From: an uncultured delta proteobacterium
GTDB taxonomy: Bacteria > Desulfobacterota > Desulfovibrionia > Desulfovibrionales > Desulfovibrionaceae
Direction: 5' to 3'
NCBI GenBank assembly: GCA_903835685.1
Contig: CAILNX010000030.1
Span: 62,001 to 126,000, forward strand
DNA: 64,000 bases
Both the position numbers and the translations under genes were made by a program. Of this stretch, positions 19,764-26,147 are shown one piece after another. The notes beneath the pieces are model-generated. The model was given only the letters and a program-made list of their open reading frames with translations. It ran no database searches and was not told the DNA's origin. How positions within the stretch are numbered: the stretch's first letter is position 1; each line of letters begins with the position of its first letter.

Positions 19764-20396
19764 GTGCAGCAGACCAAATCAGCCGGGTATCTGGTCAAGA
19801 CCTTCCTCAAGCACAACGTGATCTTCACCGAGGGTTCGCGCGGGGAGCACGCCTTTGTGCTCACCCAGGGCCGGGTGGAGATCTCCGGCATGGTTTCGGG
19901 CCGGAAGAAGGTCTTTGCCGTGCTCAAGCCCATCTCCATCTTCGGGGAGATGGCCCTGTTCCTGGACAACCAGCAGCGCACGGCCACGGCCATGGCCCTG
20001 GAAGACTGCAAGGTGGTGGTCATCAACAAATACGACCTGGACCAGTTCATCGCCAGCTCCCCGCCCATCGTGGCCACGCTCATGAACGTCCTGGTGCACC
20101 GTTTGAAGACCGCCACCCAGAAGGCCCTGCTCTGCCCCAACGTGCCCCTGGGCATCTGCCGCATCCTGGACCTCTTCGCCCTGAACGGGGTCATGGACCT
20201 GGTCTACGAACCGGCCATCCGGCACATGTCCGACGTGTTCGTGGCCACCCCGGCCCAGATCGAGACCTATCTCTCCAATCTGGAGGCCAAGAAGCTCCTG
20301 TCCGTTGAGGAGCGCGAGGGCGGGACCCGCCACATCGTGCTCAAGCAGGCCAAGTTCATGGAATCCGTGCTGAAGCAGATGCGCGAAGACGAATAG
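19764..20396 (+). CDS. Crp/Fnr-type transcriptional regulator
   Basis: 210 aa. The N-terminal cyclic-nucleotide-binding beta-barrel is clear (HAFVLTQGRVEIS, then IFGEMALFLDNQQRTATAMA), followed by a dimer helix and a C-terminal winged-helix region (ATPAQIETYLSNLEAKKLLSV). The DNA-recognition helix is less standard than in Crp or Fnr, and no Fe-S cysteines of the Fnr kind are present, so the effector is unknown. The GTG start at 19764 has GAGG 5 bases upstream. Upstream, a TATTATAT stretch near 19694 may contain its -10 element. It precedes the sRNA/cas9 locus but is separated from it by the convergent sRNA. Confidence 0.88.
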   Translation: MQQTKSAGYLVKTFLKHNVIFTEGSRGEHAFVLTQGRVEISGMVSGRKKVFAVLKPISIFGEMALFLDNQQRTATAMALEDCKVVVINKYDLDQFIASSPPIVATLMNVLVHRLKTATQKALLCPNVPLGICRILDLFALNGVMDLVYEPAIRHMSDVFVATPAQIETYLSNLEAKKLLSVEEREGGTRHIVLKQAKFMESVLKQMREDE

Positions 20397-20475: not shown

Positions 20476-20564
20476 AAAAAAAGGACGCCCCACTGGGAGG
20501 CGTCCAGGCCGTCCCCTCGGGGAACGTTGCCTACGGGACCATGGTCCCTTGTTGTGACGTGACA
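20476..20564 (-). ncRNA. Candidate tracrRNA (structured sRNA divergent from cas9)
   Basis: On the minus strand a sigma70-like promoter leads into roughly 85-90 nt with three consecutive hairpins. First comes a possible anti-repeat GTCACGTCACAAC (about 20563-20551). Then AA and the stem GGGAC-CATG-GTCCC (palindrome 20535-20548), in the position of the nexus hairpin of type II-C tracrRNAs. Next is CGTTCCC-CGA-GGGGACG (20510-20526). Last is a terminator stem GGACGCC / GGCGTCC with seven T (20476-20505). Known type II-C tracrRNAs show the same order of anti-repeat ending in ACAA, a hairpin directly after, and a terminal T run. The matching repeat would begin GTTGTGAC; no such repeat array is seen in the window. 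5' end is inferred. Confidence 0.62.
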
Positions 20565-20569
20565 TCTGA

Positions 20570-20598
20570 TACGTATCCAGGCACATATATATTGTCAA
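20570..20598 (-). promoter_or_regulatory. Promoter for the minus-strand sRNA
   Basis: On the minus strand, TTGACA (20598-20593), 17 bp, TACGTA (20575-20570). The -35 is perfect. The -10 lies within the 10-bp palindrome GATACGTATC. The -35 overlaps that of the cas9 promoter on the other strand. Confidence 0.6.
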
Positions 20599-20620
20599 TA
20601 CATATTTTATATTGTAACAT
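20592..20620 (+). promoter_or_regulatory. Promoter for cas9
   Basis: TTGTCA (20592-20597), 17 bp, TAACAT (20615-20620), in an AT-rich island of about 60 bp. Predicted transcription start near 20627 leaves a leader of about 50 nt before the preferred ATG at 20678. Confidence 0.6.
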
Positions 20621-20677
20621 GTATCGTTTTGTCTTATGATGGTTTGGTCCTTGGGACATACGGCGGTCACCCCCCCC

Positions 20678-23600
20678 ATGAGCAAAGACCATATCACCCT
20701 GCTGGGCCTGGACATCGGGTCGAATTCCGTGGGCTGGGCCCTGGTCCGGGCCGGTTTCGTCTTGGGCGCGCTCCGGCCCCTGGGGCTCCTGGCCCTGGGC
20801 GTGCGGGTCTTTCCCGAGAACTGCGACGGGGACCGCTCCCTGGGCCAGGACGCGCCCCGCAACCGGCAGCGCCGCGAGGCCCGGAAACGGCGGCGCATGC
20901 TGGATCACCGCGCCCGCCGCCTGGCCGTGGTGGCCAGCCTGCTCCAGGGCCAGGGGCTCCTGCCCTCGGGACCCTCGTCCAATGGCCCGGATCGCCACCG
21001 CCTGCTCAAGGACCTGGACGCCCGGCTCTGGACCCGGCAGACCCAGGACCGGACCATCACCCCGGATCGGTCCCTGCGCCCGGCCTTGCTGCCCTGCCTC
21101 CTGCGCCACCAGGCCCTCAAGCGGCCCCTGGAGCCCTTTGAAATCGGCCGCGCCCTGTTCCACCTGGCCCGGCGGCGGGGCAGCCAGGATCTGGACCAGG
21201 CCCGGGCTTGGGCCATGGGTGCGGGCCAGGTCATGGCCGCCCTGGACGAGGCGACCCTGGCCCGGGAGGGGAGGGGCGAGACGCCGGGGAGTTATCTCTC
21301 CCGGCTGGCCCGGGATGGCCACCCTGCGCGGGGCCATGTGTTCAGCCGTTGTTCCCTGCGCCAGGAGTTCGAGGCCATCTGGGCCATGCAGGCTGTCCAC
21401 CATCCCCGGCTCCTGGACGAACCCTTCCGCCTGCGCCTGGCTGCGGCCATCTTCGCCCAGCGCCCCCAGAAGAAATCCAGGACCGGGGCTGGCCCCTGCT
21501 CCCTGGAAAAGGACCAGCGCCGCGCGCCCTGGTCCCATCCCCTGGCCCAACGCTTCCGCCTGCTTCTGGGCCTCAATGACCTGCGCCTCCTGGACCCGGC
21601 CCGCCTGACTCATCAAGCCCGGCCCCTGGACCCGGACCAGCGCGCCCGCCTCCTGCTTCGCCTGGAGACCGCCGGGGACGCCAGTTGGACGGAAATCCGC
21701 AGCCTGCTGGGCCTGTCCCCGGACACGCTCTTCAACCCGGAGGCCACCGGCAGCCGAGGACTGCCCGGAGACCGCCTGGCCCAGGCCCTGCTCCCGGTCT
21801 TTGGCCCGGCCTGGCTTGATTTTGATTTGGCCCAACAGTCCCGGGTGGCCGAGGACCTGCGCGGCATGGTCAAGCCCGAGGCCCTGGCCGCCCGGGGCCG
21901 CCTGGTCTGGAGCCTGACCCCGGACGCGGCCCAGGCCTTGTCCCGGGTGGTCCTGGAGCCCGGGTGCTGCGCCCTGTCCCGCAAGGCCCTGGCCCGGATT
22001 CTCCCGCACCTGGAAGCAGGCCTGCCCCTGGCCCGGGCCGTGGCCCTGGAATACCCGGACCAGAATCGGGAAGAGCCCCGCGACCGCCTACCCCCCCTGT
22101 TCCTGGCCCTGGACACGGCCGCCAACCCGGTGGTGTCCCGGGCCTTGGGCGAGATGCGCAAGGTGGTCAACGCCCTGATCCGGGAGCACGGCAAGCCCGG
22201 GCTCATCCGGGTGGAGCTGGCCCGGGACCTGGGCCAGGGCCGAGGCCAGCGCCGCCGGGAGTTCGAGCAAAACCAGAAGGCCCAGGCCGCCCGCGAAACA
22301 GCCGCCCGAGACATCCTGGCCTTTCGGGGACATATGGACCCCCCCCGGGCGGAGGTGAAACGGGTGGCCCGGGCCGAGGTGGAGCGGCTGCTCCTGGCCC
22401 GGGAATGTCGCTGGGCCTGCCCCTACACCGGCCAGGCCCTGGACATGGCCGCCCTGTTTGGCCCGGAGCCGGGCTTTGATCTGGAGCACATCATCCCCCT
22501 GTCCCGGCGCTGGGACACCTCCCTGGCCAACAAGACCCTGTGCGCGGCCACGGAGAACCGCCTGCGCAAGGCGGCCCGGACCCCTCGCGAGGCTTACGCT
22601 CACGATCCCGAGCGCTATGCCCGGATTCTGGCGCGGGTGGAGGGATTCGACGCGGACCCGGCCCTTAAGGCCGCCAAGCTGCGCCGGTTCCTGGCCCAGG
22701 ACCCGGCCGACCTTCCCCCCCCGGCCGGGCGGCTCCTGTCCGACGCGGCCCAGGCCGGGCGCAAGGCCCGGGAATACCTGGGCCTGTTGTACGGGAGTCA
22801 GGCCCAGGCCCGGGTCCAGGCCCTGCCCGGCCGGGCCACGGCCCGGATGCGCGCCGCCTGGAACTTGAACGCGCTCCTCGGTCCCGGGGGCAAGAACCGC
22901 CAGGACCACCGGCACCACGCCCTGGACGCCCTGGCCGTGGCCCTGTGCGGACCAGCCGAGTTGGCCGAATTGGCCGAGCCCTGGCCCGGATTCCGTGGCC
23001 AGGCCCGGGAGATGCTCCAGGCCTGTCTGCCCTCCCACCGGGTCTGCCGCAAGGCCCGGGGGGAGCTGCATCAGGAGACCCTCTATGGTCTGCGGGCCGA
23101 AGGACCCCACGGGCCGGAAGTGGTCCTGCGCAAGCCCCTGACGGCCCTGCGACCCGGGGACATCCTCTCGGATCGGGCCATGCCCGACCGGGCCGTGCGC
23201 CAGGCCGTGCGCGAACAGTGGGAGGACGGCGGACGCAAGGCCCCGGCCCGTTTTTTCGCCGATCCGGCCAATCTGCCTCCCCGGCCCGGGGACCCGGAGG
23301 CCTCCCTGCGCCGGGTGCGTGTGCCCCAGTCCGTGCGGGTGGTGTCCGTGGGCCAGGCCCCGCACGCACGCCTGGTGCATACGGCCGCCAACCATCACTT
23401 GGCCGTGTTCGAGGGTCGGGTCGGGGACAAGTCGGTCTGGCGCGGCCAGGTGGTCACCCTCCTGGAGGCCATGGCCCGCAAGCGTGACGGCCGGGCCATC
23501 GTGGACCGCCAGGCCGGGCCAGAAGAGCGCTTCCTCTTCTCCCTGGCCAGGTCCGAGGTGCTGGAGATCCGCCTGAACGGGATCACGGAATATTTGCGGC

Positions 23601-23800
23601 TGCGCACCTTCTACCCGGACCCGGCCGGAGGGGCCAGGCTGGAGCTGGTGCGTCTCACCGACGCCCGCAGGCAACGGGACATGGAGAAAAAGACCCGGGA
23701 CAACGGCTGGTTCAAGTTCAGCGTCAAGCAGCTCGGGGGCCTGCCCTGCCGCAAGGTGCGCATCACGCCGCTGGGCCGGGTGGTCCCGGCCAATGACTAA
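20678..23800 (+). CDS. cas9: Cas9 endonuclease, compact, stand-alone
   Basis: RNA-guided DNA endonuclease of type II CRISPR systems, 1040 aa, in the size range of type II-C. RuvC-I is LLGLDIGSNSVGWAL (catalytic Asp12). An Arg-rich bridge helix follows at about 60-85. RuvC-II is IRVELARDL (Glu513), RuvC-III is HHALDALAVAL (His747, Asp750). The HNH domain has DLEHIIPLSRRW with Glu603-His604, then Asn618 and Asn627. All catalytic positions are present, so the enzyme should cut both strands. The C-terminal 250 residues are the wedge/PAM region. The ATG at 20678 begins just before RuvC-I; an in-frame ATG at 20636 adds 14 residues, and neither has a clear ribosome site. GC content is like the host genes, so there is no sign of recent arrival. 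No cas1, cas2, csn2, cas4 or array adjoins it. Confidence 0.97.
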   Translation: MSKDHITLLGLDIGSNSVGWALVRAGFVLGALRPLGLLALGVRVFPENCDGDRSLGQDAPRNRQRREARKRRRMLDHRARRLAVVASLLQGQGLLPSGPSSNGPDRHRLLKDLDARLWTRQTQDRTITPDRSLRPALLPCLLRHQALKRPLEPFEIGRALFHLARRRGSQDLDQARAWAMGAGQVMAALDEATLAREGRGETPGSYLSRLARDGHPARGHVFSRCSLRQEFEAIWAMQAVHHPRLLDEPFRLRLAAAIFAQRPQKKSRTGAGPCSLEKDQRRAPWSHPLAQRFRLLLGLNDLRLLDPARLTHQARPLDPDQRARLLLRLETAGDASWTEIRSLLGLSPDTLFNPEATGSRGLPGDRLAQALLPVFGPAWLDFDLAQQSRVAEDLRGMVKPEALAARGRLVWSLTPDAAQALSRVVLEPGCCALSRKALARILPHLEAGLPLARAVALEYPDQNREEPRDRLPPLFLALDTAANPVVSRALGEMRKVVNALIREHGKPGLIRVELARDLGQGRGQRRREFEQNQKAQAARETAARDILAFRGHMDPPRAEVKRVARAEVERLLLARECRWACPYTGQALDMAALFGPEPGFDLEHIIPLSRRWDTSLANKTLCAATENRLRKAARTPREAYAHDPERYARILARVEGFDADPALKAAKLRRFLAQDPADLPPPAGRLLSDAAQAGRKAREYLGLLYGSQAQARVQALPGRATARMRAAWNLNALLGPGGKNRQDHRHHALDALAVALCGPAELAELAEPWPGFRGQAREMLQACLPSHRVCRKARGELHQETLYGLRAEGPHGPEVVLRKPLTALRPGDILSDRAMPDRAVRQAVREQWEDGGRKAPARFFADPANLPPRPGDPEASLRRVRVPQSVRVVSVGQAPHARLVHTAANHHLAVFEGRVGDKSVWRGQVVTLLEAMARKRDGRAIVDRQAGPEERFLFSLARSEVLEIRLNGITEYLRLRTFYPDPAGGARLELVRLTDARRQRDMEKKTRDNGWFKFSVKQLGGLPCRKVRITPLGRVVPAND

Positions 23801-23837
23801 AGTTGTGTTCCTCGAATAAGACCCGACAGGAAAGAAG

Positions 23838-23906
23838 CATATGAATCATTCTTTCTCATTCTTGCGCTCCTCTGCCAGAGATTGCCAACTCCAGAACGCA
23901 ACACAA
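23838..23906 (+). repeat. Element 4: degenerate A+T-rich hairpin with conserved 3' block, after cas9
   Basis: GAATCATTCTTTCTCATTC followed by TTGCGC (23862-23867), and AACAC at 23900, exactly 38 bases from the start of TTGCGC, the same spacing as in the element after rex. The hairpin arm is eroded. A second AT-rich stretch (23908-23935) follows. It fills most of the gap between cas9 and the convergent exporter gene. Confidence 0.5.
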
Positions 23907-23953
23907 AGAATATATTATTATTTTTCTCTGGGTCCTCTTTCGCAGACGCAACG

Positions 23954-24601
23954 CTAGAACAGCCCCTCCTGGACCAGGTCCCGGACCATGGGGGCCATGC
24001 TGACCACCAGGAGCAGGGCCATGCTCACGTTGAACACCCGGAGCCGGGTGCGGTCCTGCAACAATCCGCGCAGGGCCGTGCCCAGGGCGGCCCAGGCCCC
24101 CACGCAGGGGAAGTTCACCACCAGATACACCCCGCAGATAATCAGGACCCCCAGGGTGGGATGATCCTTGGGAGTGAACGTGCTGGCTGCGGTGATGCAC
24201 ATCATGAGCGCCTTGGGATTCACCCACTGGAAGGCCGTGGCCTGAAGGAAAGTCATGGGCCGCGCGCCGACGGACCTGGACCCTGGCCTTTGGGCCGCGC
24301 GCTCCGGGACGGCCGGGGGCGTGGAGGCCGCGATGCGCCAGGCCAGATAGAGGAGATAGCCCGCCCCGGCCACGCGCAGGATGGTGTACAGCGAGGGAAA
24401 GGCCTCGAAGGCCAGGCCCACGCCCAGGCCCAGGGCCAGTTGCATGAAGGTGAAGCCGATGCTCACGCCCAGGATGTGGGGCAGGGTGCGCCTGAGCCCG
24501 AAATTCACGCCCGAGGCAAAAAGCATGGCGTTGTTCGGCCCAGGGGTGATGGAGGTCACAAAGGCAAAGGCGATGAGTGAGACAAGGGTTTCCGGGGTCA
24601 T
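23954..24601 (-). CDS. LysE/RhtB-family amino-acid exporter
   Basis: 215 aa with six hydrophobic segments and the family signature SITPGPNNAMLFASGVNFG near the N-terminus, followed by GVSIGFTFMQLALG and WVNPKALMM. Such proteins export amino acids such as threonine, homoserine or lysine; the substrate is not predictable. Start at 24601 has AGGAGA 6 bases upstream. It is divergent from a MocR-type regulator, which very likely controls it through the shared 163-bp region that carries an 8-bp inverted repeat around the exporter's probable -10. Confidence 0.93.
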   Translation of the reverse strand: MTPETLVSLIAFAFVTSITPGPNNAMLFASGVNFGLRRTLPHILGVSIGFTFMQLALGLGVGLAFEAFPSLYTILRVAGAGYLLYLAWRIAASTPPAVPERAAQRPGSRSVGARPMTFLQATAFQWVNPKALMMCITAASTFTPKDHPTLGVLIICGVYLVVNFPCVGAWAALGTALRGLLQDRTRLRVFNVSMALLLVVSMAPMVRDLVQEGLF

Positions 24602-24628
24602 GGTCTTCTCCTGATGCGGTCCTGATCG

Positions 24629-24661
24629 CGGATGGATACAATATATAATTGCCTCCATCCG
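24629..24661. promoter_or_regulatory. Operator candidate between exporter and MocR genes
   Basis: Perfect inverted repeat CGGATGGA / TCCATCCG with 17 bp between arms, enclosing the AT-rich sequence ATATATAATTG that likely holds the exporter's -10. Placement over a promoter and beside a divergent regulator argues for a binding site. Confidence 0.6.
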
Positions 24662-24727
24662 TGCTCCGGCCATATTCCATTTACATTCAGCCATGCTGGC
24701 CAATTCCGAACAGCCCAAGCCTATGCC

Positions 24728-24756
24728 TTGACGGAATCGCACGGTCAATGTATTTA
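24728..24756 (+). promoter_or_regulatory. Promoter of the MocR gene
   Basis: TTGACG, 17 bp, TATTTA. The predicted transcription start (about 24763) falls at the ATG at 24765, and no ribosome site precedes it, so the mRNA may be leaderless. Confidence 0.5.
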
Positions 24757-24764
24757 TTGTCACC

Positions 24765-26147
24765 ATGACAATATGGACGCCGCAATTGACCGGAGACCGC
24801 CCCATCTCCCTGGGCCTGGCCGAGGCCATTGCCGCTGAAGTGGAGCGCGGGGGCCTCAAGCCAGGCGACCGCCTGCCCACCCACCGGGATCTGGCCGATC
24901 TCCTGGGCGTGTCCGTGGGCGCGGTGACCCGGGGCTATGCCGAGGCCGCCCGGCGGGGACTGGTGCGTGGAGAGGTGGGCCGGGGCACCGTGGTCTGCGG
25001 GGTCCAGAAGCCCGGCCTGCCCTGGTGGGGCCAGGCCGACTCCGAGCCCGGGCTGGTGGACCTGGGCCTGGTCACCGGCATGTACGGCCTGGACCCGGAC
25101 CTGGGCGAGGCCTTGCGTCGCCTGGCGGATTCCGGCAACGCGCAGGACCTCCTGCGCTATCAGCCGCCCCTCGGCATGCCCCGCCACCGCGAGGCCGGGG
25201 CGGCCTGGCTCTCCCGCTTCGGGCTGCGCGTGGAGCCCGAGCGCGTGCTGGTCACCAGCGGCGGCCAGCACGCCCTGGTGGTCCTCTTCTCCTCCCTGTT
25301 CCGGCCCGGGGACCGCATCGCGGCCGCCAGCCTGAACTATCCCGGCCTCATGTCCGCAGCCGGAATCCTGGGCCTGAAACTCGTGCCCCTGGAGTCCGAC
25401 CACCAGGGCCTCCTGCCCGAGGCCCTGGCTGCGGCCTGCGACCGGGAGCCCTTGCGCGGCCTGTATTTCATGTCCGGGATGCACAACCCGACCACGGCCA
25501 GCGCCGGGTCGGAGCGGGTGGCCCGCCTGGCCGAGGTGGCCCGCAAACACGGGCTGCTCGTGGTCGAGGACGGGGCCTATGCCTTGAGCGCGGACGAGCC
25601 CTGCCAGACCCTGGCCGGGCTTGCGCCGGAACGGACCTTTTTCGTGGCCAGCGTGTCCAAGATGCTGGCCGGGGGCTTGCGCGTGGCCTATGTGGCCAGC
25701 CCGGCCGAACACCTGGAGCGCCTGGCCCTGGGCGTCACCAGCACCACCTGGATGGCCTCGCCCCTATGCGTGGAGATCGCCAGCCGATGGATCATGGACG
25801 GCACGGCCGATGCGGTGCTCGGGCGCAAGCGGGCCGAGGCCCGGAAGCGGGCTACCCTGGCCCGGGAGATTTTCGCCGGGCAACGCGCGAGCCTCGGCCG
25901 CCAGGGCTATTTTTTGTGGCTTCAACTGCCCGAGCCGTGGCGGGCCGCTGATTTCGAGCGGGCGGCGGCCAAGCGCGGGGTGCTGGTCATTAGCGGGGAC
26001 GCCTTTGCCCTGGGCCAGACGCCAGCGCCCATGGCCGTGCGGGTGTCCTTGAGCGCGGCCCGCAGCCGGGACGAACTGGCCCGAGGACTCACCATCCTGG
26101 CCGCCCTGCTGGAAGAATCGCCCCGGCCCGGCCGCGCCATTGTCTAG
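24765..26147 (+). CDS. MocR-type regulator (GntR winged helix fused to PLP aminotransferase fold)
   Basis: 460 aa. Residues 15-75 are a GntR-type winged helix (GDRLPTHRDLADLLGVSVGAVTRGY); from about 95 on is a type I aminotransferase fold. The PLP-binding lysine is in FVASVSKMLAGGLRVAY; other fold residues appear as YQPPLGMPRHREA, MHNPTTAS and VVEDGAY. MocR proteins sense PLP or amino-acid-related ligands and usually control a divergent gene, here the LysE-type exporter. No aminotransferase activity should be assumed. Starts at 24765 without a ribosome site, consistent with the near-leaderless promoter. Confidence 0.92.
   Translation: MTIWTPQLTGDRPISLGLAEAIAAEVERGGLKPGDRLPTHRDLADLLGVSVGAVTRGYAEAARRGLVRGEVGRGTVVCGVQKPGLPWWGQADSEPGLVDLGLVTGMYGLDPDLGEALRRLADSGNAQDLLRYQPPLGMPRHREAGAAWLSRFGLRVEPERVLVTSGGQHALVVLFSSLFRPGDRIAAASLNYPGLMSAAGILGLKLVPLESDHQGLLPEALAAACDREPLRGLYFMSGMHNPTTASAGSERVARLAEVARKHGLLVVEDGAYALSADEPCQTLAGLAPERTFFVASVSKMLAGGLRVAYVASPAEHLERLALGVTSTTWMASPLCVEIASRWIMDGTADAVLGRKRAEARKRATLAREIFAGQRASLGRQGYFLWLQLPEPWRAADFERAAAKRGVLVISGDAFALGQTPAPMAVRVSLSAARSRDELARGLTILAALLEESPRPGRAIV

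What the first reader, a model, noticed from the sequence alone, without database searches (positions are those of the whole stretch)
20476..23800. Stand-alone Cas9 without adaptation genes or CRISPR array
A complete compact Cas9 with all RuvC and HNH catalytic residues lies between a Crp-type regulator and an amino-acid exporter gene. No cas1, cas2, cas4 or csn2 is in the 64 kb, and I saw no tandem repeats with spacers. Host-like GC and its own promoter and small RNA argue that it is retained and expressed. It may serve an array elsewhere in the genome, or may have been redirected to gene regulation, as known for Francisella Cas9 with its scaRNA.
Basis: partly seen in the sequence, partly recalled or inferred. 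Interest (0 to 1): 0.8.

Follow-up and report, generated by a model that had tools for sequence, protein, structure and literature searches.

The report
Cas9 and tracrRNA without an array
A bacterium related to Desulfovibrio keeps an intact-looking Cas9 gene and its helper RNA, but no matching spacer array or adaptation genes were found, so Cas9 is either an idle leftover or takes its guides from somewhere unexpected.

Summary
A full-length II-C-type Cas9 (ORF 20636-23800; likelier start 20678) lies between a Crp-type regulator and a LysE exporter. On the opposite strand just upstream is an intact-looking tracrRNA gene (about 20571-20476). The window has no cas1 or array. The 3.94-Mb draft genome has one cas1 and one cas2, both in a type I-C operon on another contig. 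Five pattern searches found no array matching the anti-repeat. Of 13 family relatives tested, 13 carry a type II cas1 beside cas9 and 11 show array repeats there. Of 80 broader loci, none with adequate flanks lacks both. So this is the effector half of a II-C system, without adaptation genes or array. Cas9 is not a plain pseudogene: catalytic core and host codon usage are intact. It deviates about twice as often as five relatives at moderately conserved sites (41 of 222 against 19-23), about half of them in the REC lobe, though it is no outlier among 79 Cas9s. Best reading: an orphan effector with no cognate guide. Guides from host RNAs or an unassembled array are not excluded. Orphan cas9 without cas1-cas2, but with repeats, is known (Campylobacter coli clade 3).

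The parts
20636..23800 (+). cas9 ORF (1054 aa); likelier start at 20678 (1040 aa), judged from the length of relatives' N-termini
20476..20571 (-). inferred tracrRNA, about 96 nt, from just after the -10-like box to the end of the T run; ends not mapped
20551..20567 (-). anti-repeat (reads GTTGTGACGTGACATCT on the + strand), 85 bases before ORF start 20636 (127 before 20678); in G003, G026, G020, G135 it lies 73-89 bases before the called start, same strand
20483..20505 (-). intrinsic terminator stem of the tracrRNA, T7 at 20482-20476
20570..20598 (-). promoter-like boxes of the tracrRNA: TTGACA 20598-20593, 17 nt, TACGTA 20575-20570; TTGAC recurs at about the same place in 4 relatives. Read by eye; the consensus scan lists no minus-strand promoter
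23801..23953 (.). 153-bp gap (43% GC) where tested relatives carry cas1 (13 of 13) and, in 8 of 12 tried, a cas2 hit; shorter than either gene
19764..20396 (+). Crp-type regulator (flanking gene, not part of the system)
23954..24880 (-). LysE-type exporter (flanking gene, convergent with cas9)

Best explanation
[quoted passage not shown] Shown: both parts are intact by sequence and arranged as in array-bearing near relatives, and no cognate array is in the assembly. Inferred: the missing parts were lost in this lineage; tracrRNA and Cas9 are still made and bind each other; without a cognate crRNA the complex is mostly idle, with at most weak loading of stray RNAs that pair with the anti-repeat; selection is partly relaxed, and adaptive immunity is carried by the co-resident type I-C system.
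For: 13 of 13 family relatives tested (of 25 with a match) carry a type II cas1 on the cas9 contig, G020 as a piece cut by the contig end. 11 of 13 show array repeats in the fetched stretch, G266 and G119 only one repeat pair at a contig end. cas2 hit in 8 of 12 tried. Anti-repeat at a like place and strand in 4 relatives. No cognate array. Single cas1 and cas2, in the I-C operon. Partly relaxed constraint: 41 of 222 columns at 70% conservation deviate, against 19-23 in five relatives (paired p 0.0007-0.011), 20 of the 41 in the REC lobe. Longest root-to-tip of 82 in a midpoint-rooted tree. Only one of 83 without F or Y after RRG in the REC motif, and a shortened segment after RuvC-III.
Against: No stop or frameshift in 1054 codons. 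Among 79 Cas9s its deviation is ordinary: rank 13 of 79 at 70%, 14 at 80%, 26 at 90% (z 0.82, 0.61, 0.11); by residual it ranks 48 of 83. Columns at 90% or more are kept as in relatives (5 of 98 deviate, relatives 3-4), and the excess at 80% is not significant (17 of 159 against 8-11, p 0.06-0.31). In a leave-one-out on five close sequences G135 keeps no more (230 of 299 against 230 of 296). Relative-rate p runs from 0.28 to 1.5e-5 by outgroup and sister. Host-like codon usage and an intact tracrRNA would also fit active retention.
Confidence: 0.5

Rival explanations
1. Domesticated Cas9: the Cas9-tracrRNA pair is kept because it uses non-array guides (host transcripts paired to the anti-repeat, or a degenerate repeat RNA like scaRNA) to regulate genes or to restrict DNA.
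For: tracrRNA with promoter-like boxes, anti-repeat and terminator looks intact; catalytic core kept; host-like codon usage. Host transcripts can act as non-canonical crRNAs for C. jejuni Cas9 (PMC8224270, passages). A II-C scaRNA acting after transcription in Neisseria meningitidis is reported in PMC13431127 (search listing and start of abstract only).
Against: No repeat-like single site stands out: 6 non-self 13-mer hits against 3 with the reversed control pattern; their contexts were printed but not tested for promoters or terminators. No other genome of the genus appeared in the searches, so conservation of the bare state is untested.
Confidence: 0.26
2. A cognate array exists but is not in the assembly (gap between contigs, or a replicon missing from the draft), so Cas9 is an ordinary effector with an array in trans.
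For: Draft of 65 contigs, 97.56% complete; the I-C array is cut by a contig end. CampyICE1 has cas9 without cas1-cas2 and three dispersed arrays (PMC8743540, passages).
Against: The cas9 locus is inside a 142-kb contig; where relatives showed an array, it was near cas9. No two sites within 1 mismatch of the 13-base pattern lie near each other. No array with this exact repeat start in IMG/VR.
Confidence: 0.19
3. Assembly artefact: the true locus has cas1-cas2-array and the contig is chimeric after cas9.
For: The other relatives tested have cas1 after cas9; the gap is AT-rich.
Against: No type II cas1 over cut-off anywhere in the assembly; a LysE-GntR pair like the downstream one exists in relative G155; host-like GC3; contamination 0.44%.
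Confidence: 0.05

Closest known systems
   Same: cas9 with a divergent tracrRNA just upstream; Cas9 42% identical
   Different: G003 has cas1, cas2 and an array after cas9; none of these here
Orphan cas9 of Campylobacter coli clade 3 (PMC4607530, passages)
   Same: II-C cas9 without cas1 or cas2
   Different: the paper labels it 'cas9 only + repeats'; here no repeats were found
CampyICE1 Cas9 system (PMC8743540, passages)
   Same: cas9 without cas1-cas2
   Different: has up to three short arrays on the element
Nme1Cas9 (solved structure)
   Same: best sequence match in PDB (E 2e-46) and best Foldseek match (E 1.4e-47, TM 0.55)
   Different: 23% identity in the structural alignment; around the REC motif Nme1Cas9 reads HRGYLSQRK where this protein reads RRGSQDLDQ; this pairing of the two motifs is by eye
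scaRNA systems and C. jejuni non-canonical crRNAs (PMC6199352, PMC8224270, passages)
   Same: Cas9 plus tracrRNA using RNAs from outside an array
   Different: the C. jejuni strain also has crRNAs; that Francisella keeps an array is recalled; no scaRNA-like unit was found here

Membership tests
Cas9 (TIGR01865) | profile over cut-off with RuvC and HNH motifs | tested here: met
[quoted passage not shown]
[quoted passage not shown]
   (assembled genome only)
[quoted passage not shown]
   by sequence only
[quoted passage not shown]
   no csn2 search was run
Cas9 regulator with scaRNA (Francisella type) | second small RNA with a degenerate repeat that pairs with the tracrRNA | tested here: inconclusive
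   counts near the control; no RNA data
Cas9 with non-canonical crRNAs (C. jejuni type) | host transcripts bound through the anti-repeat | not testable with these tools
   needs RIP-seq

The most novel reading that the evidence does not exclude
A naturally array-less Cas9-tracrRNA pair that has been domesticated: it draws its guides from host transcripts that pair with the anti-repeat, and its REC lobe (changed RRGFxSNRK motif, more change than in near relatives) has adapted to irregular duplexes.
Probability: 0.18. Interest if true: 0.85.

Novelty: new variant of a known kind. Interest (0 to 1): 0.42.

Why it matters
In the C. jejuni work I read passages of, non-canonical guides had to compete with the strain's own crRNAs and their role stayed unclear (PMC8224270). 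A natural genome with Cas9 and tracrRNA but no array would be a cleaner background: RNA bound besides tracrRNA must be non-canonical. If none is bound, it is an example of an effector that has outlived its memory.

Tried and rejected
Natural single guide: the hairpin at the 5' end of the fold of 20600-20470 overlaps the TTGAC box seen at about the same place in four relatives, so I read it as promoter, not as guide. This is inference.

I-C array serving Cas9: the first 20 bases of the I-C repeat hardly pair with the anti-repeat (-3.8 kcal/mol, against -29.2 for the implied own repeat and -15.7 to -18.9 for four relatives' repeats; one orientation only).

Plain pseudogene: rejected by intact frame, conserved core and codon usage.

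Ancestral site: none of eight flanking proteins hits the relatives' cas9 stretches. Six relatives' Crp stretches lack the other neighbours, while LysE and GntR sit together in G155. The order of events was not resolved.

The first genome-contig scan with the single protein found nothing; the scan with alignment A1 did. A viral scan with the DUF2239 neighbour was off the question and empty. Paper searches gave mostly genome-editing papers; one search gave none.

Full report
WHAT IS THERE. The window is bases 62001-126000 of a 142,079-bp contig (C30) of a 3.94-Mb draft genome in 65 contigs, 97.56% complete. The ORF 20636-23800 encodes Cas9 (TIGR01865, 430.6 bits). Alignment with relatives suggests a start at 20678. 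An AlphaFold2 model of the 1040-aa form (33 sequences, mean pLDDT 83.4, pTM 0.60) matches Nme1Cas9 best (Foldseek E 1.4e-47, TM 0.55). Its rmsd is 13.5 A, so domain placement is not to be trusted. By sequence the best solved relative is also Nme1Cas9 (E 2e-46).

THE SMALL RNA. On the minus strand upstream of cas9 lies a tracrRNA-like gene: TTGACA and TACGTA boxes 17 nt apart (my reading; the scan lists no minus-strand promoter), an anti-repeat, hairpins, and a terminator stem with seven T. The stretch folds only moderately better than shuffles (z -2.06). Rfam at gathering thresholds gives nothing in the window. The case rests on comparison: in G003, G026, G020 and G135 the first 14 bases of the array repeat recur with one mismatch, 73-89 bases before the called cas9 start, in the same orientation, with a TTGAC box at about the same place. 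The repeat used for G020 was that of G026, as its own stretch holds no array. For G277, G249, G266 and G164 the same scan found no such site outside the array. In the wider set 2 of 23 loci showed it within 400 nt upstream. So this layout is shown for near relatives only.

WHAT IS MISSING. Genome-wide there is one cas1 and one cas2. They sit with cas3, cas8c, cas7 and cas4 in a type I-C operon on C16, beside an array cut by the contig end. The type II cas1 profile gives only a sub-threshold hit to that gene. GTTGTGAC pairs at array spacing: none. A looser 13-base pair pattern: none. A 22-mer with up to 3 mismatches: self only. A 16-mer with up to 2: self plus 5, against 4 with the reversed control. 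A 13-base pattern with up to 1: self plus 6, against 3, no two near each other. Between the cas9 and LysE stops there are 153 bp.

HOW UNUSUAL. Of 288 family genomes, 26 hold a match, this one included. I tested 13 of the other 25, mostly the best-scoring. 13 of 13 have a type II cas1 on the cas9 contig (G020 a piece at the contig end, below cut-off there; its better hit is on another contig). Array repeats are seen in 11 of 13: G266 and G119 show a single pair at a contig end, G020's contig ends inside cas1, and G030 has none in its 20-kb stretch. For cas2 I tried the one ORF that best filled the stretch after cas1 in 12 genomes (G020 left out): 8 hit, misses G135, G115, G030, G188, perhaps from a wrong ORF. 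The six misses are L118, L129, L134 and L153, where the contig ends within about 340 bp of the match, and L146 and L166, which have an array. So none of the 80 with adequate flanks lacks both. Of 9 viral loci one (L177) lacks cas1, and it has an array.

STATE OF THE PROTEIN, AGAINST DECAY. Among 83 Cas9s it deviates at 5 of 93 columns conserved at 90% or more, rank 48 of 83 by residual. Among 79 (L111, L097, L150 and L100 dropped as truncated or short) it ranks 13 at the 70% threshold (42 of 226), 14 at 80% and 26 at 90%, z 0.82, 0.61 and 0.11: no outlier. Codon usage is host-like: GC3 0.887; CAI-like 0.67 in frame against 0.35 one frame off, 0.59-0.77 in eight segments; the flanking gaps are 56% and 43% GC.

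STATE OF THE PROTEIN, FOR PARTLY RELAXED CONSTRAINT. Against its near relatives (G003, G026, G020, G135, L117), with 73 background sequences, it deviates at 41 of 222 columns at 70% conservation, they at 19-23 (paired p 0.0007-0.011); at 80% 17 of 159 against 8-11 (p 0.06-0.31); at 90% 5 of 98 against 3-4. In the REC lobe it is 20 of 81 against 8-11 in the four relatives printed. Domain limits are my own, set by eye. In a FastTree of 82 (L111 dropped, midpoint root) it groups with G020, G026 and G003 (support 0.955) and has the longest root-to-tip path, 2.07 against mean 1.53, sd 0.23. In 22 of 22 relative-rate comparisons it is the faster side, p 0.28 to 1.5e-5, not independent; the control G003 against G026 gives p 0.053 to 1 in six. 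In a five-sequence leave-one-out, however, G135 keeps no more than it does. Two private features: the REC motif mostly read RRGFxSNRK reads RRGSQDLDQ, the only one of 83 without F or Y after RRG; and the segment after RuvC-III has 37 residues where the others have a median of 55 and a minimum of 45. That this REC motif contacts guide RNA is recalled, not tested.

READING. An effector pair without memory or the means to make it. Codon usage and the kept core argue for recent loss or continued use; the extra change against near relatives argues for relaxed or altered demands on guide handling. I favour an orphan with no cognate guide (0.50) over domestication (0.26), an unassembled array (0.19) and artefact (0.05). 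No other genome of the genus appeared in the sets searched, so conservation of the bare state in sister strains could not be tested.

LITERATURE. PMC4607530 (passages): C. coli clade 3 has cas9 without cas1-cas2, 'cas9 only + repeats'. PMC8743540 (passages): CampyICE1 cas9 without cas1-cas2, with up to three arrays. PMC8224270 (passages): host transcripts serve as non-canonical crRNAs for C. jejuni Cas9, physiological role unclear. PMC6199352 (passages): in silico scaRNAs in type II systems. PMC6882279 (passages): the three passages shown do not touch array-less cas9. PMC13431127 (listing and start of abstract): a II-C scaRNA regulator in N. meningitidis. No title or abstract start listed describes a cas9-tracrRNA locus without array; the listings held at most 12-20 papers each and most subscription papers are not in that library.

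Noticed in passing
L007:1-771 (contig C35 start) and L008 (contig C40 start), own genome: Two near-identical IscB-like C-terminal pieces run off contig starts; L007 scores 152.4 bits to NF040563 guided_IscB, under the whole-protein cut-off of 175, being cut.
   Followed up: partly
L002:3518-11472 (contig C16, own genome): Type I-C genes cas3, cas8c, cas7, cas4, cas1, cas2 with an array cut by the contig end; cas5 was not checked.
   Followed up: partly
L141:11041-11700 (Lentisphaerae SIG86): Only a short weak cas1 hit (E 1.6e-10), overlapping the start of an array: looks like a truncated cas1.
   Followed up: no
L146 (Phaeovibrio sulfidiphilus DSM 23193): cas9 followed directly by a short array, no cas1 hit in the locus.
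   Followed up: no
window 20551-20567: The anti-repeat has G at position 9 (+ strand) where repeats of G003, G026 and G135 have T; none of 39 loci with a readable repeat start has G there (L039 and L110 are one; a few starts may be misread).
   Followed up: partly
L048 (G030): cas9 and type II cas1 but no array found in the 20-kb stretch by the simple finder.
   Followed up: no
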